From positions 1 to 57,756 of the forward strand of contig JAQBNG010000107.1 in the NCBI GenBank assembly GCA_028288675.1: a DNA stretch of 57,756 nt, written 5' to 3'. Source of the DNA: Flavisolibacter sp. GTDB taxonomy: Bacteria > Bacteroidota > Bacteroidia > Chitinophagales > Chitinophagaceae. Shown piece after piece: positions 8,714 through 53,580 of the stretch. Both the position numbers and the translations under genes were made by a program. Every line of letters begins with the position of its first letter. The first letter of the stretch is position 1. The notes under the pieces are model-generated. The model was not told the DNA's origin. It worked only from the letters and a program-made list of their open reading frames with translations, and did not search any database.

Positions 8714-8720
8714 GGAGGGA

Positions 8721-8742
8721 AGGAGACAGGAGTCAGAATTCA
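8721..8742. repeat. Left inverted-repeat arm of decayed four-helix-bundle cassette
   Basis: This 22-nt arm, AGGAGACAGGAGTC then AGAATTCA, starts 7 nt after the T9SS gene stop. It matches the reverse complement of 8992-9013 at 20 of 22 positions. The arms are built from short GGAG/GTC-type direct repeats. Confidence 0.7.
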
Positions 8743-8751
8743 TGAGACGGG

Positions 8752-8936
8752 ATGAAGATTCTTTCTGGCGATTGATTTGCATTGGCTGCAATAGACACAG
8801 CTGCCCTTCTAAACTGAGAAGTCAGGCCAAGTATTTCGTGCTTAGGAAAAGTTTCAGTGCACTGGTAAATCGCCAATACAAAGCATGTGCCTTTTGCCAG
8901 ACAATAAGTTCTTCAAAGTTTTTGCTTTTCTCCATT
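8752..8936 (-). pseudogene. Remnant of a four-helix-bundle (23S rRNA IVP-like) gene
   Basis: Reading the minus strand from ATG at 8936 gives MEKSKNFEELIVWQKAHAL, then after a one-base frameshift near 8850 KHEILGLTSQFRRAAVSIAAN. This is the PF05635 pattern: a DLxVWQKA-like N-terminus followed by LTSQFRRAAVSIAAN, which normally continues into a VAEG motif. The VAEG part and everything after it are lost. The fragment is about half the usual 120 residues. It lies between the inverted-repeat arms at 8721-8742 and 8992-9013, as the intact relative at 51.7 kb lies between its own arms. Confidence 0.7.
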
Positions 8937-8991
8937 CCACTAAACTACTTATTCAACACGGCAACTTATAGCTTCCTCCCTCCTGACTCCT

Positions 8992-9013
8992 GTATTCCGA
9001 CTCCTGTCTCCTT
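8992..9013. repeat. Right inverted-repeat arm of decayed four-helix-bundle cassette
   Basis: TGTATTCCGACTCCTGTCTC plus CT is the partner of 8721-8742. A further GACTCCTGT copy lies just to its left (from 8986), so the arm itself is internally repetitive. It ends 32 nt before the pdxA start. Confidence 0.7.
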
Positions 9014-9045
9014 GCTTCTTTCCGTACATTTACCTTTTAATCTTT

Positions 9046-18813: not shown

Positions 18814-19512
18814 AAATGCAATAATAGTGATTACAGAAAAAGCGGCCTCACCCTAACCCTGCCTCATCCGGCTTCGCCACCTTCTCCAAAAGGAGAAGGA
18901 AAATGGAACATGGTTTTTTGCGGAGAGGGAACAACGTACACTTACTGCTTATGTCAGATTCGTTGTCATGGCTTGCATCCTACTTAATCAGGACGCAATT
19001 GATAACACAGTCTCTTTGCGAAGCAAGGGTCTGTGTCCGGATGGCTTTCCTCCTACCGGGGTAACCATAGGTTACGAGCATAGCTCTGAGGGATGGGGCC
19101 GGCTGGCCGTATTTGCGTAAGGGATAGAAACGGAAATCCTTTTTGGGCCTCCCGAAAAGATTGGAGTGGATAGCCCGACCCGAAGGGATACGTCCAAAAA
19201 AATAATCAATACACTACGCTTATCTACTACTAAAGCTTATCTCAAACTATAGTACAGGTAGCTTTTATTTAAGCAACAGCTTATCATTCTACTTGCGATT
19301 ACAATAAATGGTGATTAACTTTAATAATTGCCCAAATAGATTTTTCACCATTTGTCCGACTCATAATCACAGACTGCGTACCTCTTTAGCAAAGCAATTT
19401 GAACTTATTCCCCACCCGTTGCAAATTCTTTTTTCGCGTTGTCCGGCTCCTAAATTTTACGATTACTAAACTAACCGTCTCAAAAATTATTTAATACTTC
19501 AACCACTTATTT
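18814..19512. other. 699-nt gap with intergenic repeats
   Basis: Contains a pyrimidine-rich stretch with a CTTCTCC/GGAGAAG hairpin near 18880-18900 and, at 19113-19198, copy A of a structured repeat. No coding sequence was recognised. The 200 nt before the metallophosphoesterase are AT-rich and may contain its promoter. Confidence 0.5.
19113..19198 (+). repeat. Structured dispersed repeat, copy A
   Basis: Shares four conserved blocks with the inverted copy at 25304-25407: TTGCGTAAGGGATAGAAACG, AAATCCTTTT, AAAGATTGGAGTGGATAGCC and GGATACGtCCAAA. Between them lie short hairpins that differ between the copies (here GGG/CCC types). The ends can pair (GCGTA with TACGT through one G-U). A transposase-free repeat or a small structured RNA are both possible. 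Confidence 0.7.
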
Positions 19513-25303: not shown

Positions 25304-25407
25304 TTTGGGCGTATCCCCGCCGATGCGGCGTGACCGGGCTATCCACTCCAATCTTTTATCCCGCTTGAGGCGGGATAAAAGGATTTTCGTTTCTATCCCT
25401 TACGCAA
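25304..25407 (-). repeat. Structured dispersed repeat, copy B
   Basis: Inverted relative to the copy at 19113. On the minus strand it carries the same blocks (TTGCGTAAGGGATAGAAACG; AAGATTGGAGTGGATAGCCC; GGGATACGCCCAAA). The first variable hairpin here is a perfect 12-bp stem (CTTTTATCCCGC/GCGGGATAAAAG) and the second is CGCCG/CGGCG. The ends pair perfectly (GCGTA/TACGC), where copy A has TACGT. Confidence 0.75.
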
Positions 25408-25441
25408 GTATAGCTTCAAACTTAGTAGGCAATAAATACAT

Positions 25442-40188: not shown

Positions 40189-40320
40189 TATTTGGTATTG
40201 GCCGCAAAAATAAGGGAAGAAAGGTTTGGAGCTTGGGGTTTGATGCCTGGAGTTATCAGGATGTAAAAGAGACTTGTTCCTTTCTTTTTTGTACCGGCGA
40301 TTGTATTTCATAGCATCGTC

Positions 40321-40372
40321 TCTTGCGTCGCACTCTTGTACGTTTTGTAATTCTCTTGAACTTTATCTGAAC
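40321..40372 (-). repeat. Dispersed repeat arm, left, 40.3-kb locus
   Basis: Contains CTTGCGTCGCACTCTTGTAC and TGTAATTCTCTTGAACTTTA plus TCTGAAC. The last 27 nt (40346-40372) are the reverse complement of 40683-40709 with one mismatch. Confidence 0.7.
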
Positions 40373-40425
40373 TGGGATTTATTGGATGGATGTGAATAAT
40401 TGGATATAAAGACAGTTCTTTCTAC

Positions 40426-40615
40426 AAGCCTGAAGGGCTTTAATATGAATATCCCTGGGTGCAACCCAGGGACAAGTAATAATGATTGAAACAACAACCC
40501 GAAGGGTTGAACATCGTTCGCTAATGTTCAACCCCATTCAGGGTTGCCATAAACAACGTGTTCTTCTGACCACCGGTTTTACCGGCGGCTACTCATATTA
40601 AAGCCCTTCAGGCTT
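40426..40615. repeat. 23-bp perfect inverted repeat with inner hairpins
   Basis: Arms at 40426-40448 and 40593-40615 (AAGCCTGAAGGGCTTTAATA plus TGA, and its complement) match at all 23 positions. Inside are CCCTGGGT-GCA-ACCCAGGG (40453-40471), GGGTTGAACAT/ATGTTCAACCC (40504-40534) and CCGGT/ACCGG (40573-40584). Confidence 0.8.
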
Positions 40616-40682
40616 TTGAAAACTACTTGCATCATTTATCGTTTATCTAATCACATTCATCCCAACTTTCCTATTCATCTTG

Positions 40683-40775
40683 GTTCAGATAAAGTTCAGG
40701 AGAATTACAGAACGATGAACGGAGCGTCGCAACGGACGGTTCATAGTAGTACAAATGCCGGTCAACAAAAAGATA
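40683..40775 (+). repeat. Dispersed repeat arm, right, 40.3-kb locus
   Basis: GTTCAGATAAAGTTCAGGAG followed by GAGCGTCGCAACGGACGGTT and CATAGTAGTACAAATGCCGG. It pairs with the left arm and resembles 50077-50131. Confidence 0.7.
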
Positions 40776-40867
40776 GCGACGAAACCATAAACAAGTGTAA
40801 GAAAACTTACATCTTACGACTACTCCTAACTCTTAACTCCAAACCCCAAACTCCTTATCTTCAAACC

Positions 40868-49916: not shown

Positions 49917-50040
49917 TTGTCATCCCGACGGAGGAGGGATCTGAGGTAAACTTTATAAACGACCTGTGGAGTCAGTTTTACTTTTTAACAATTGTTGTTT
50001 ATAAAACAGCTCAAAGATCCCTCCTCCGTCGGGATGACAA
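49917..50040. repeat. 26-bp perfect inverted repeat
   Basis: Arms at 49917-49942 and 50015-50040 contain TTGTCATCCCGACGGAGGAG plus GGATCT and its exact complement, 72 nt apart. Inner parts pair less well. A MITE-like or REP-type palindrome is likely; no transposase is nearby. Confidence 0.8.
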
Positions 50041-50174: not shown

Positions 50175-51680
50175 TCACTTCGGCAACGTCGTCCAGTTGT
50201 ACCCATCCCTTGCGATTAAAGCTTCCGCATCTTCAGGCCCCCAGGTGCCAGGCTCATAATTAGGAAAGTCAACAGGAGGGCGGGTATGCCAGGCTTCCAA
50301 TATTGGCTGAATAATTTCCCAGGCCATCTCTACCTGGTCGGCACGCATGAATAAAGTCGGGTTGCCTTCAATCACATCTTCAAGTAAAGTCTCATAGGCT
50401 TCCGGTGAATTATCGCCGTAGGCATCGGTATAGTTAAACACCATATCCACCGGTTGCAACAACATTTGCGGACCTGGGCGTTTAGCCTGGAAACGCAGGC
50501 GGATATTCATCTGGGGCTGTATGCTAATTACCAACCTGTTAGGCCGCCATGTTTCACCCGCTTCGGCTGGAAAGGAAAACTGCGGGGCAGGCTTAAATTC
50601 AATAACAATAAGGCTGCTTTTCGATTGCATTGCTTTGCCGGTACGTACAAAAAACGGAACATCTTTCCAACGCCAGTTGTCTACATAAAATTTTACAGCT
50701 GCAAAGGTTTCCACAGGCGATGCCGGTGTAACTCCTTTCTCAGCATGATAGGCTATTATTTCTTTGCCATGAACCCAGCCCTCGCTGTACTGCCCCCTTA
50801 CGGCATTGCGGTGTACTTCATCTTTTTGCCAGCGGCGGATGGCTTTTAATACGTCTAGTTTTTTATTACGGATTTCATCTGCGGCAAAAGAAACAGGGGC
50901 TTCCATGGCTATCATACAAACCAATTGAAGAATATGATTTTGTACCATGTCACGCAGAGCCCCGGCGCCTTCGTAGTAGGAGCCCCGGCCTTCCACCCCA
51001 ATATCCTCTGCCACGGTAATTTGAACATGGTCAATATAATGGCTGCTCCAAAGCGGTTCAAATAAGGCATTGGCAAAACGAAGGGCCAAAATATTTTGAA
51101 CAGTTTCTTTACCCAGGTAATGGTCAATACGGTAGATCTGTTCTTCCTTGAACATAGTGCCTAACAGAATATTTAAATCCATGGCACTTTTTAAATCATG
51201 GCCGAATGGTTTTTCAAATACGATGCGGCTTCGGCAAGGGTCTTCTGTTAACTTATGCTCGTGCAGCTTTGTGGCAATCATTGGTGCCATCTGCGGGGCT
51301 ACCGACATATAATACATCGTATTTGCTTTTTCACCCCATTCCTTTTCCTTAACCGCAACTTTATCCGCCATGTCCTTATACGTAGCTTCCTGTTCCAGGT
51401 CGGCTTTTATATAATCAATGTTGGGGGAGAAAACCTTCCAGATTTCCTCCAAATTTTCTTTGCGGCGACTAAAGGAGGAGATGCCTTTTTTTATATAGTC
51501 TAAATATTCATTCTCATTAAACTCAGTACGGCCAATCCCGTAGATAAAATACTTTTCGGGCAGGTATTTATCTATATACAAATTATAAAGAGCCGGTAAT
51601 AGTTTGCGGTAAGCAAGGTCGCCACTGCCGCCGAAGATGAAGATGATAGTGGGGGGAAGCTTATTGATTGATTGATTCAT
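50175..51680 (-). CDS. zwf: Glucose-6-phosphate 1-dehydrogenase
   Basis: A 501-residue Zwf that starts the oxidative pentose phosphate pathway by oxidising glucose-6-phosphate with NADP. Motifs: FIFGGSGDLAYRKLLPALY (nucleotide binding), the active-site RIDHYLGKETVQN with catalytic His/Lys, and EKPFGHD. Length is normal. The first residues (MNQSINK) are encoded by a short ATTG tetranucleotide tract. The four-helix-bundle cassette ends 5 nt upstream, so the cassette lies between zwf and its likely operon partner gnd. Confidence 0.95.
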   Translation of the reverse strand: MNQSINKLPPTIIFIFGGSGDLAYRKLLPALYNLYIDKYLPEKYFIYGIGRTEFNENEYLDYIKKGISSFSRRKENLEEIWKVFSPNIDYIKADLEQEATYKDMADKVAVKEKEWGEKANTMYYMSVAPQMAPMIATKLHEHKLTEDPCRSRIVFEKPFGHDLKSAMDLNILLGTMFKEEQIYRIDHYLGKETVQNILALRFANALFEPLWSSHYIDHVQITVAEDIGVEGRGSYYEGAGALRDMVQNHILQLVCMIAMEAPVSFAADEIRNKKLDVLKAIRRWQKDEVHRNAVRGQYSEGWVHGKEIIAYHAEKGVTPASPVETFAAVKFYVDNWRWKDVPFFVRTGKAMQSKSSLIVIEFKPAPQFSFPAEAGETWRPNRLVISIQPQMNIRLRFQAKRPGPQMLLQPVDMVFNYTDAYGDNSPEAYETLLEDVIEGNPTLFMRADQVEMAWEIIQPILEAWHTRPPVDFPNYEPGTWGPEDAEALIARDGYNWTTLPK

Positions 51681-51685
51681 TGTAA

Positions 51686-51714
51686 GAAGTTGATAGGTTG
51701 ACAGGTTGATAAGT
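51686..51714. repeat. Left inverted-repeat arm of intact four-helix-bundle cassette
   Basis: GAAGTTGATAGGTTGACAGG then TTGATAAGT. It matches the reverse complement of 52130-52158 at all but about one position and is itself made of GTTGA units. It ends just before the zwf start codon. Confidence 0.75.
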
Positions 51715-51728
51715 AAATAAGCCTGAGA

Positions 51729-52103
51729 TTAAAGTTTGCTTCGTAAATAAGTGATATAGCCATTTAGAAGCCGCTCAACTTCATCAAACATTGTTTTGTA
51801 ATTTGACAACTGTTGTTGCGTAATATAATGGCAGTCGAAAGCGTCAATCAAATGATTTAAAGTTTCACTGAGCGAGCCTCTTGCCTGAATGCAAAAGTGA
51901 GTTTGATCTTTGTAAGTAAACCGCCCGTGACCTTCGGCAATATTTGCATTGATGGAACGGGCAGATGGGATGATTTGGCCGCTTAGTTTATATTTTTCCT
52001 CGATAGGAAACGTCTTTGCCAGTTTTTCTATTTCTTTTTTAAACTCTCTACCCTTCTTCCAAACATCCAGATCAGTAAAAGGCTGATGGGATTTCTGCTC
52101 CAT
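51729..52103 (-). CDS. Four-helix-bundle protein (23S rRNA IVP/Avd-like)
   Basis: A 124-residue helical protein of the PF05635 type: FTDLDVWKKGREFKKEI, YKLSGQIIPSARSINANIAE then GHGRFTYKDQTHFCIQARGS, and helix-rich SETLNHLIDAFDCHYI. The family includes proteins encoded in 23S rRNA intervening sequences and Avd of diversity-generating retroelements; there is no reverse transcriptase here. ATG 52103 fits the family better than 52130. The gene lies between inverted repeats exactly between gnd and zwf. Its molecular role is unknown. Confidence 0.88.
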   Translation of the reverse strand: MEQKSHQPFTDLDVWKKGREFKKEIEKLAKTFPIEEKYKLSGQIIPSARSINANIAEGHGRFTYKDQTHFCIQARGSLSETLNHLIDAFDCHYITQQQLSNYKTMFDEVERLLNGYITYLRSKL

Positions 52104-52128
52104 AATATAAGTTTGAAATATTGTTAGC

Positions 52129-52158
52129 ACTTATCAACCTGTCAACTTATCAACTTCC
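52129..52158. repeat. Right inverted-repeat arm of intact four-helix-bundle cassette
   Basis: ACTTATCAACCTGTCAACTT then ATCAACTTCC. It includes the gnd stop codon (TGA on the minus strand at 52150-52152). Partner of 51686-51714. Confidence 0.75.
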
Positions 52159-53580
52159 GTTTACGTTCCACTCCGTATGAAACACACCTTCCTTATCTAT
52201 ACGTTGATAAGTATGCGCTCCAAAAAAATCACGTTGTGCCTGGATAAGGTTTACCGGTAATCGTTCGCTGCAATACGCATCAAAATAGGCAAGGGCGCTA
52301 CTCATGGCGGCAACAGGAATTTTAGAATTTACTGCCAATGAAACGATCTTCCGGATACCAGCTTCTTTTTGTTTTAATACATCGGCAATGCTTTGATGCA
52401 GCAATACATTGGATAGCGTTGAATTTTCTGCGTAGGCTTTATCAAACTGGTAGAGTAAAGATGAACGGATAATACAGCCGCCCTTCCAGATAGAAACCAC
52501 ATCGGGCATTGGAATCTCCATTTTATAATCAACCGAAACTTTGGCTAGTAAACTTAAGCCTTGCGCATACGCAATAAGGAAAGAGAAGTATAAAGCATCT
52601 TCCAAATCCTGTATAAATTCAGTTGATGGCAGGGTAAGCTTTGTTATTTCTGTACCGTATAGTTTGCTTGCTTCTACTCTTTCATTTTTATACACCGATA
52701 GATCACGCATAGCAACTGCCATATCAATTGTTGGTATGGAAACCGGCAGGTTCATTGCATCCTGAGAGGTCCATTTGCCGGTGCCTTTAGAGCCAGCCTT
52801 GTCTAAAATATGATCTACCAGGTAATCTTTGTCATCCGCTGTTTCTGTATCTAATGTTCTAAAAACTTCCGCGGTAATTTCTATTAAAAACGATTGCAGG
52901 CTGCCCGCATTCCATTTTAAAAAGACAGCATGTAACTCTTCGTTTGTATAGCCTGCGCCGCGCTTCATAATGTCGTAGGCTTCGCTTATGAGTTGCATCA
53001 TAGCATACTCAATTCCGTTGTGCACCATTTTTACGTAATGCCCTGCCGGACCGTTTCCCATATAAGCTACACAAGGCTTGCCATCAACTTTAGCGGCTAT
53101 AGCTTCCAGTATAGGTTGTAAGTAGCGATAGGCTTCCTTATCACCACCGGGCATCATACTCGGGCCAAATCGTGCACCCGCTTCACCGCCCGAAACACCC
53201 ATTCCAAAAAAGTGAATGCCTTTCGGTTGCAGGTATTCAATTCGCTTTTGAGTGTCTTTATAAAACGAGTTGCCACCATCAATTAGAATATCATCTTCCT
53301 CTAAATAAGGCAACAGGTTATTTATCACATCGTCAACCGGCTTACCAGCGGGCACCAGCATCATTATTTTGCGGGGCTTTTTTAGGGAGCGCACCATTTC
53401 TTCAATATTGATGGTACCCTTTACAACCGTGCCTGAAGGTGCGGCTGCTTCCAGCTTATCGGCCCTTTCCTGTTTCAGATCAAAGCCTATTACTGCAAAA
53501 CCATTATCGGCTATGTTCAGCAAAAGATTACTGCCCATCACGCCAATGCCGATCATTCCGAAATCAAAAGTTGCTTCCAT
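52150..53580 (-). CDS. gnd: 6-phosphogluconate dehydrogenase, decarboxylating
   Basis: A 476-residue Gnd that converts 6-phosphogluconate to ribulose-5-phosphate with NADP. Motifs: IGVMGSNLLLNIADNG (nucleotide binding), MGVSGGEAGARFGPSMMPGG and catalytic HYVKMVHNGIEYAMMQ. It is full length. The stop codon lies inside an arm of the inverted repeat, so the cassette abuts gnd directly. The cytochrome c gene ends 2 nt upstream; zwf follows the cassette. Confidence 0.95.
   Translation of the reverse strand: MEATFDFGMIGIGVMGSNLLLNIADNGFAVIGFDLKQERADKLEAAAPSGTVVKGTINIEEMVRSLKKPRKIMMLVPAGKPVDDVINNLLPYLEEDDILIDGGNSFYKDTQKRIEYLQPKGIHFFGMGVSGGEAGARFGPSMMPGGDKEAYRYLQPILEAIAAKVDGKPCVAYMGNGPAGHYVKMVHNGIEYAMMQLISEAYDIMKRGAGYTNEELHAVFLKWNAGSLQSFLIEITAEVFRTLDTETADDKDYLVDHILDKAGSKGTGKWTSQDAMNLPVSIPTIDMAVAMRDLSVYKNERVEASKLYGTEITKLTLPSTEFIQDLEDALYFSFLIAYAQGLSLLAKVSVDYKMEIPMPDVVSIWKGGCIIRSSLLYQFDKAYAENSTLSNVLLHQSIADVLKQKEAGIRKIVSLAVNSKIPVAAMSSALAYFDAYCSERLPVNLIQAQRDFFGAHTYQRIDKEGVFHTEWNVNGS

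What the first reader, a model, noticed from the sequence alone, without database searches (positions are those of the whole stretch)
51686..52158. Four-helix-bundle gene in an inverted-repeat cassette splitting gnd and zwf
Seen: a PF05635-type gene is bounded by 29-30 nt arms that are near-perfect reverse complements. One arm includes the gnd stop codon, the other ends 5 nt before the zwf start. Known: intervening sequences in 23S rRNA of Leptospira and Coxiella carry related genes inside a stem formed by terminal repeats. Inference: the same kind of element has settled in an mRNA operon, where the arms could fold into a processed stem without breaking either gene. That would be a mobile or domesticated element outside rRNA.
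Basis: partly seen in the sequence, partly recalled or inferred. Interest (0 to 1): 0.75.

Follow-up and report, generated by a model that had tools for sequence, protein, structure and literature searches.

The report
Gene with its own scattered hairpins
A small gene of unknown function sits inside a hairpin whose stem is built of a short repeated word; relatives of the gene tend to come with their own word, and hairpins written in that word but lacking the gene are scattered through the same genomes, which looks like a little-noticed kind of mobile genetic element.

Summary
In detail: a PF05635 (Avd-like four-helix-bundle, "IVP") gene lies between 29-nt inverted arms wedged between gnd and zwf. 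The arms are arrays of a degenerate 8-nt word, GTTGAYAR. This is not an isolated oddity. Of 107 PF05635 genes tested (Bacteroidota, Cyanobacteriota, Gemmatimonadota), 91 have complementary flanks; of the 76 with arms of at least 22 nt, 73 have a 7- or 8-nt period. The word differs between elements but follows the protein subfamily, even at unrelated sites. Genomes carrying a given subfamily hold dozens to hundreds of matches to its word (two subfamilies, Fisher p 5e-5 and 2e-4, no phylogenetic correction). In the one genome dissected, 1 of 22 word clusters holds the gene. Sampled hairpins sit beside stop codons. Empty sites exist: at gnd-zwf in relatives and at five plasmid junctions (0-28 nt replaced, no target duplication seen). 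Best reading: a two-component repeat system that works like REPIN/RAYT, in which an IVP recognises its own arrays and short hairpins spread in its presence. It is a member neither of REPIN/RAYT (no Y1 transposase) nor of classical rRNA intervening sequences. Recognition, the enzymology of movement and RNase III processing are inferred.

The parts
52129..52157 (-). 5' arm (upstream of the IVP gene in the sense of the operon): about 3.6 copies of GTTGAYAR; contains the gnd stop codon (52150-52152)
51729..52103 (-). IVP gene, PF05635/TIGR02436 (Avd-like four-helix bundle), ATG start MEQKSHQP..; the mechanical ORF runs 51729-52130 from GTG
   Evidence: orthologs at the same junction in G003 and G014; pN 0.12-0.16 against pS 0.73-0.84
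51686..51714 (-). 3' arm, inverted copy of the 5' arm, ending 5 nt before the zwf start codon
52150..53580 (-). gnd (6-phosphogluconate dehydrogenase), upstream gene of the interrupted pair
   Evidence: ORF; function taken from the finding and recall, not from a family search; adjacent to zwf in relatives
50175..51680 (-). zwf (glucose-6-phosphate dehydrogenase), downstream gene of the interrupted pair
   Evidence: ORF; function taken from the finding and recall, not from a family search; relatives
8715..9018 (-). second, decayed element of the same kind in the window: PF05635 remnant (8769-8894) between arms of another word (GGAGTCAG)

Best explanation
The cassette is the gene-bearing copy of a two-component repeat system. 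Component 1 is a family of hairpins whose stems are arrays of a 7-8 nt word; component 2 is a small oligomeric four-helix-bundle protein (IVP, PF05635) encoded in the loop of one hairpin and matched to that word. I infer that the protein binds its cognate arrays as single strands (RNA, or the lagging-strand template), about one repeat per subunit, and that hairpins in this bound form are copied into new sites by host enzymes. That would leave one or few gene-bearing copies and many gene-less hairpins, as REPINs relate to RAYTs. Surviving copies lie at gene junctions, often at the stop codon. SHOWN: anatomy; arms travel with the gene; word follows protein subfamily; word abundance is associated with presence of the cognate gene in two subfamilies; empty sites; purifying selection on the protein. 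INFERRED: binding, the chemistry of copying, and selfish versus useful role. At gnd-zwf the copy appears old: it is shared with G003 and G014.
For: (1) 91 of 107 PF05635 genes have complementary flanks of score 24 or more; of the 76 with arms of at least 22 nt, the best period is 7 nt in 55 and 8 nt in 18, while shuffles show no preference; C is 8.8% of the 5' arm. (2) Arm word against protein identity, after dropping 37 pairs with homologous flanks and 3 without a defined identity: 31 of 44 pairs at 60% identity or more share words, 27 of 1890 below 25%; Mantel r 0.356, 0 of 2000 permutations; across phyla r 0.23, 1 of 5000. (3) Relatives of the window protein fetched afterwards: GTTGA arms in both flanks in 4 of 9, in at least one in 5 of 9; among 102 other elements 1 and 6. 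Three of the five share one junction and may be one insertion. (4) The GTTGA-subfamily protein (60% identity or more) is in 5 of 29 genomes, which have 41, 54, 92, 132 and 210 pattern matches; 1 of the other 24 exceeds 40 (p 5e-5; rank test within the genus 5e-4). GTTCAC subfamily: 4 of 29 genomes have 72, 72, 124 and 137; 1 of the other 25 exceeds 4 (p 2e-4; within the genus 1.5e-3). (5) In G003 the 72 GTTCAC matches form 22 clusters: 14 forward-then-reverse, 0 the other way, 8 one-armed; one, of 483 bp, spans the gene. (6) Sampled hairpins without PF05635 lie within 12 nt of an ORF end in 10 of 14 cases, 8% expected. (7) Empty sites.
Against: 12 of 80 relatives' genes do not exceed the 95% control for arm complementarity, and 16 of 107 stay below score 24. 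In the new-locus test 4 of 9 lack the predicted word in both flanks (L195, L197, L198, L201), though L195, L197 and L198 have other arms; the exact pattern was written after I had seen these arms. G014 has 96 GTTCAC matches without a close cognate gene, G010 (62% complete) 44 GTTGA matches without one, and G026 26 with only a 42% relative, so hairpins can exist without the gene or outlive it. One GTTCAC carrier, G015, has a broken gene. Identity and abundance thresholds were set after seeing the tables, overlapping matches inflate the counts, and phylogeny was not corrected; against pure inheritance speaks only that G008 is nearer to G000 by zwf identity than G013-G015 yet has no GTTGA match. 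Only 7 of 14 sampled hairpins without PF05635 match a known gene-arm vocabulary above the null. No binding, excision or copying was observed, and no enzyme for movement identified: RVT_1 is missing from this genome, and both RVT_1 and Y1_Tnp from G020, which has 6 PF05635 hits.
Confidence: 0.7

Rival explanations
1. Regulatory system rather than mobile element: IVP is a post-transcriptional regulator that binds array hairpins at the ends of cistrons (its own mRNA included) and tunes mRNA processing; the dispersed hairpins are its regulon.
For: Position beside stop codons, 10 of 14; strong purifying selection on the protein, pN 0.12-0.16 against pS 0.73-0.84 at gnd-zwf; RNA fold closes the arms; old, shared copy in three species.
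Against: Hairpins turn over at the same junction between species of one genus (gene-bearing, gene-less with other words, or none); gene and arms recur together at unrelated sites, and copies are sometimes decayed (stops in 3 of 18 own hits).
Confidence: 0.12
2. Passive element moved by an unrelated transposase or reverse transcriptase in trans, IVP having a separate role (for example immunity against rivals).
For: Y1_Tnp is present in 22 of 29 genomes, this one included (5 matches), RVT_1 in 10 of 29; Y1 enzymes act on hairpins (PMC8266576 passages).
Against: Neither is needed for carriage: G000 has no RVT_1 with 18 PF05635 hits, G020 has neither with 6 hits. Past presence cannot be excluded.
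Confidence: 0.15
3. Classical intervening sequence (IVS) that escaped from 23S rRNA: arms are RNase III substrates, the ORF is a passenger, spread is by rare transfer.
For: Same protein family and terminal stem; the Coxiella IVS has a 28-bp terminal stem around an S23p ORF and is cut by RNase III in vitro (passages of PMC4990558).
Against: All 20 elements whose neighbouring genes I looked at sit at protein-gene junctions, though rRNA genes were not searched; arms are subfamily-specific arrays and also occur without the gene.
Confidence: 0.08
4. Arms are pre-existing intergenic hairpins or slippage-prone repeats, and the gene merely inserts into their loops.
For: Gene-less hairpins exist at the same junction and, by extrapolation from 400 kb, outnumber PF05635 hits in G003 about twelve to one (178 against 14).
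Against: Word follows protein subfamily at unrelated sites and across phyla, so arms and gene move together or are matched; word abundance is associated with the cognate gene.
Confidence: 0.07

Closest known systems
REPIN/RAYT (REPtron) systems
   Same: Hairpins made of two inverted copies of a recognition sequence, dispersed in extragenic space, with a cognate gene that is single-copy and has such repeats beside it; abundance often correlates with the gene (passages of PMC3116915 and PMC8266576).
   Different: The gene is a four-helix-bundle protein (PF05635), not a Y1/HUH transposase; the repeat is a 7-8 nt tandem array, not a REP palindrome; one genome may hold many different gene/word pairs (18 PF05635 hits in G000).
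23S rRNA intervening sequences with S23p ORF (Leptospira, Coxiella)
   Same: Same Pfam family by name (S23p membership recalled), similar size (428 nt in Coxiella; median 482 nt here), terminal stem of about 28-30 bp.
   Different: Host sequence is mRNA at gene junctions, not rRNA helices; arms are word arrays specific to the protein subfamily; copies without the gene are abundant.
Avd accessory protein of diversity-generating retroelements
   Same: PMC10053308 says PF05635 resembles Avd and that structure alignment suggests homology (passage).
   Different: No reverse transcriptase accompanies the gene in the window; RVT_1 is absent from the window's genome.
Heptamer repeats: cyanobacterial STRR (recalled) and TAACTGA repeats, Xanthomonas GGGAATC repeats
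   Same: 7-nt tandem arrays, mainly intergenic; 70 cases in Xcc and 75 in Xac of convergent repeat pairs (PMC4692102 passage); TAACTGA arrays in Beggiatoaceae, Cyanobacteria and five Bacteroidetes (PMC4679880 passages).
   Different: The terms S23 and four helix have no occurrence in either paper's main text; whether those particular arrays are arms or relics of such elements was not tested here.

Membership tests
PF05635 / TIGR02436 (23S_rRNA_IVP, four helix bundle protein) | Score above the curated cut-off | tested here: met
   111.5 bits against 33.8; 101.6 against 24
23S rRNA intervening sequence (IVS) | Located within an rRNA gene | tested here: not met
   Between gnd and zwf
23S rRNA intervening sequence (IVS) | Terminal inverted repeats forming a stem around the ORF | tested here: met
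   (predicted fold)
23S rRNA intervening sequence (IVS) | Excision from the transcript by RNase III | not testable with these tools
   no RNA data
REPIN/RAYT | Inverted pairs of a recognition sequence forming hairpins, dispersed genome-wide | tested here: met
   GTTCAC word in G003: 14 of 22 clusters in inverted order, 8 one-armed; other genomes counted but not dissected
REPIN/RAYT | Cognate gene beside its own repeats; abundance correlates with the gene | tested here: met
   two subfamilies, without phylogenetic correction
REPIN/RAYT | Associated gene is a Y1 (HUH) transposase | tested here: not met
   The gene between the arms is PF05635, its only Pfam match; G020 carries 6 PF05635 hits and no PF01797
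Diversity-generating retroelement (Avd) | Reverse transcriptase | tested here: not met
   RVT_1 absent from G000
Diversity-generating retroelement (Avd) | TR/VR repeat pair | not tested
   not searched for
DDE-type insertion sequence | Target-site duplication | tested here: not met
   none seen by eye at 5 of 5 plasmid junctions with an empty counterpart

The most novel reading that the evidence does not exclude
PF05635 proteins are the founding members of a class of repeat-hairpin systems in at least three phyla (Bacteroidota, Cyanobacteriota, Gemmatimonadota) that uses a word code: each subfamily recognises its own 7-8 nt word through an oligomer binding one repeat per subunit, and drives its spread without a classical transposase or reverse transcriptase. 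The long-unexplained heptamer repeats of cyanobacteria, Xanthomonas and Bacteroidota would be their products, and rRNA intervening sequences a special case that landed in rRNA. The near-invariant Q, S, N, E, E residues would form an uncharacterised active site.
Probability: 0.35. Interest if true: 0.92.

Novelty: new variant of a known kind. Interest (0 to 1): 0.78.

Why it matters
PF05635 matches occur in 232 of 296 genomes sampled from the window's phylum, and the plasmid copies are annotated "four helix bundle protein" or "S23 ribosomal protein" without a function. A link between these genes and matching repeat arrays gives the family a first testable role, gives intergenic heptamer hairpins a candidate origin, and offers a natural series of protein/word pairs from which a recognition code could be read. 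It also offers a simple explanation for a reported CRISPR association of this family (figure legend in PMC10910872): such elements land at junctions inside cas operons, with cas6-cas4 and cas10-cmr3 seen here.

Tried and rejected
Chance inverted repeat: rejected by shuffles and mismatched-pair controls. One repeat family shared by all elements: rejected, since arms differ between elements and a strict 15-nt pattern from this arm (up to 1 mismatch) hits only this locus in the genome; the looser 21-nt word pattern has 41 matches there. Reverse transcriptase in trans as a requirement: not supported. Y1 transposase as a requirement: not supported. Phage origin: no match in the phage collection. 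Known RNA family: at gathering thresholds Rfam finds only two Flavo-1 RNAs elsewhere in the window. Concerted evolution of the arms at gnd-zwf: unproven; within-element scores are 53, 46 and 36, but between-species scores reach 43. In the hairpin scan the reversed control gave 67 hits against 94 real ones, so raw inverted hits mean little; only those passing a period test were used (14 of 39). One of these 14 (L165:12649-13062) encloses a 117-aa ORF that has no significant Pfam match; the other 13 are 50-197 bp long.

Literature: ten searches of the open-access PMC library listed no paper that I recognised as linking PF05635 genes with tandem-array hairpins; only top-ranked titles and abstract beginnings were seen, and subscription papers are mostly missing from that library. 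Of PMC4679880, PMC10910872, PMC4990558, PMC10053308, PMC4692102, PMC3116915 and PMC8266576 I saw passages returned by term search; other papers only as listings.

Rows dropped: of 18 own-genome hits, 5 were left out of the 107 (L006, L007, L013 at contig ends; L011 and L017, pieces of one gene). Of 205 hits in relatives (whose listing was itself cut) I took 80 by hand, mainly long hits from the better assembled genomes. Of 16 plasmid records I took 14 (two close copies of others dropped). L192 was left out of the new-locus test because it is the G014 locus already used. G005 was left out of the junction comparison because no gnd match adjoins its zwf.

Full report
WHAT IS THERE. Between gnd (52150-53580, minus strand) and zwf (50175-51680, minus) lies a 472-bp cassette: a 29-nt arm, a short PF05635 gene, and an inverted copy of the arm. 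The arm scores 26.5 against at most 12 in 100 shuffles. The arms are not arbitrary sequence but about 3.6 copies of an 8-nt word, GTTGAYAR. As RNA the arms are predicted to pair (z -4.94). No Rfam family reaches its gathering score in the cassette.

THE FAMILY USUALLY HAS THIS ANATOMY. The same genome has 18 PF05635 hits. Of the 15 not cut by a contig end, 12 have flanking arms that beat all 100 shuffles (two of these are pieces of one gene), and the words differ. For 80 of the 205 hits in relatives (chosen by hand, mostly long hits), 68 have own flanks more complementary than 95% of 800 mismatched pairs, 39 more than 99% and 5 more than all. Of 14 elements from plasmid records (13 Cyanobacteriota, 1 Gemmatimonadota; 14 of 16 records), 10 exceed the 95% control with 200-nt flanks, and 13 reach score 24 with 250-nt flanks plus 20 nt inside the ORF. 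Examples are GGGAGTA arrays around the gene between two ribonucleotide reductase genes and AGCTTTT arrays between cas6 and cas4. Over all 107 elements, 91 reach score 24; of the 76 with arms of at least 22 nt, the best period is 7 nt in 55 and 8 nt in 18 (shuffled arms: no preference), and the 5' arm is poor in C, 8.8%. In the Bacteroidota set the paired arm is 30 nt and the whole element 482 bp at the median (78 elements).

THE WORD BELONGS TO THE PROTEIN. After removing 37 pairs with homologous flanks and 3 without a defined identity, arms share words (5-mer sharing of 0.3 or more) in 31 of 44 pairs with at least 60% protein identity and in 27 of 1890 pairs below 25%. The Mantel correlation is 0.356 and no permutation of 2000 reaches it; between Bacteroidota and plasmid elements it is 0.23, reached by 1 of 5000. 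For example, the AGGAGTCAG word accompanies one subfamily both in Flavisolibacter and in Nostocales plasmids. New loci of the window's subfamily were then checked: GTTGA-type arms in both flanks in 4 of 9 and in at least one in 5 of 9, against 1 and 6 of 102 other elements. The exact pattern was written after I had seen these arms, and three of the five lie at one junction, recalled from the protein sequences as paaB-paaC (L193, L194, L200), so they may be one old insertion. Four of the nine do not fit the strict word in either flank. This is partial support.

COPIES WITHOUT PF05635. In 400 kb of the closed genome G003, 14 of 39 tested hairpins without a PF05635 match are 7/8-nt arrays, about 178 per genome if the sample is typical; 7 of the 14 match a known gene-arm vocabulary above the null. 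One of the 14 encloses a 117-aa ORF that has no significant Pfam match. Ten of 14 lie within 12 nt of the end of an ORF, 8% expected, p 8e-9 (ORFs called mechanically). In the whole G003 genome the GTTCAC word gives 22 clusters: 14 in forward-then-reverse order, none in the opposite order, 8 with one arm detected; one cluster, of 483 bp, spans the gene.

ABUNDANCE GOES WITH THE COGNATE GENE. Across 29 genomes the GTTGA pattern has 41, 54, 92, 132 and 210 matches in the five genomes with a protein at least 60% identical to the window's, and over 40 in one of the other 24, namely G010, which is 62% complete; the backward-read control has at most 7 per genome (Fisher p 5e-5). For the GTTCAC word and its subfamily (70% identity or more), the four carriers have 72, 72, 124 and 137; of the other 25 only G014 exceeds 4, with 96; control at most 8 (p 2e-4). 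Rank tests inside the genus alone (18 genomes) give 5e-4 and 1.5e-3. Thresholds were set after seeing the tables, and overlapping matches are counted. In G015 the GTTCAC protein is broken in two frames. The carriers do not follow closeness to G000: G008 is nearer to G000 by zwf identity than G013, G014 and G015 and has no GTTGA match. A formal correction for phylogeny was not made.

THE gnd-zwf SITE. Among 16 junctions in 15 genomes, three carry the gene with GTTGA arms (G000, G003, G014). Five carry gene-less 7/8-nt arrays with other words (G008, G016, G009, G011, G015); of these, G008 and G011 do not reach significance in the inverted-repeat test and G016 is borderline (9 of 200 shuffles as good). 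Three carry other inverted repeats without a significant array (G013 and the two G012 copies). Five have no significant inverted repeat (G006, G007, G004, and G001 and G010 with borderline arrays, 8 and 3 of 200). Thus empty sites exist, and the junction appears to have been used by several repeat families. G008, with a GTTCAC array there, carries the GTTCAC-subfamily gene elsewhere. The three orthologous proteins are under strong constraint: pN 0.12-0.16 with pS 0.73-0.84.

INSERTION DETAILS. At five plasmid junctions with an empty counterpart (L148, L149, L151, L152 and L153 against L188, L184, L182/L183/L185, L189/L190 and L187), the element lies at or next to the end of a gene and replaces 0 to about 28 nt, and by eye no target duplication is visible. 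In L151 the upstream gene lost about 12 codons; in L153 the element brings the new stop codon. Two other junctions (L147, L150) carry different repeats in the sibling plasmid. A single element (L152:957-1375) recurs at 78% and 81% DNA identity in two other contexts, with the match ending at or near the arms.

MECHANISM. The facts suggest that gene and arms are one unit, that the word is matched to the protein, and that hairpins of that word accumulate where the gene is or was. The economical reading is recognition of the word by the protein and dependence of hairpin spread on it, as proposed for REPINs and RAYTs (passages of PMC3116915 and PMC8266576). The protein has no transposase domain. 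A solved relative, 2gsc, has five chains in its entry; that this family and Avd form pentamers is recalled. I infer that a ring binds about one repeat per subunit in a single-stranded array and that host enzymes do the copying. RVT_1 is absent from G000 and both RVT_1 and Y1_Tnp from G020, so neither is required for carriage. Five polar residues are nearly invariant in 91 divergent proteins (Q43 99%, S50 95%, N54 92%, E57 96%, E80 99%), which leaves room for an unrecognised activity.

VERDICT. I file it as a new variant that works like REPIN/RAYT but is a member of neither that family nor the rRNA intervening sequences.

Noticed in passing
window 8715-9018: A second, decayed PF05635 element with GGAGTCAG-type arms (43 nt, 79% complementary).
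   Followed up: partly
window 40221-40255 and 40827-40861: Inverted arms of the GGGTTTGGAG type (35 nt, 71% complementary) about 570 nt apart with no PF05635 match between them but nested inverted repeats (40286-40771, 40414-40627); perhaps elements inserted into one another.
   Followed up: no
window 49917-50040: Perfect 26-nt inverted repeat (TTGTCATCCCGACGGAGGAGGGATCT) with a 72-nt loop downstream of zwf; may be another dispersed repeat family.
   Followed up: no
window 19110-19184 (+) and 25328-25410 (-): Two Flavo-1 RNAs (RF01705).
   Followed up: no
PF05635 alignment, positions counted from MEQK of the window protein: Q43, S50, N54, E57 and E80 are 92-99% identical in 91 proteins that are otherwise very divergent, which looks like an active or ligand site.
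   Followed up: partly
L147, L148, L150 (cas6-cas4 and cas10-cmr3 junctions): PF05635 genes inside cas operons are elements of the same kind; the reported CRISPR association of this family may be hitch-hiking.
   Followed up: partly
L193, L194, L200 (junction recalled as paaB-paaC): In the mechanical ORFs of all three, the 3' arm is translated as the N-terminus of the downstream gene (for example TDQLINQSTDQLIN in L200).
   Followed up: partly
L181 (Dolichospermum cas6-cas4 junction): Same junction as L147 but holding a different inverted repeat (GTAGGTTGGGTTGA...), so one junction may be used by unrelated repeat families.
   Followed up: no
L165:12649-13062 (G003): Array hairpin (7-nt word) enclosing a 117-aa ORF with no significant Pfam match; either a diverged PF05635 gene or another passenger of the same kind of hairpin.
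   Followed up: partly
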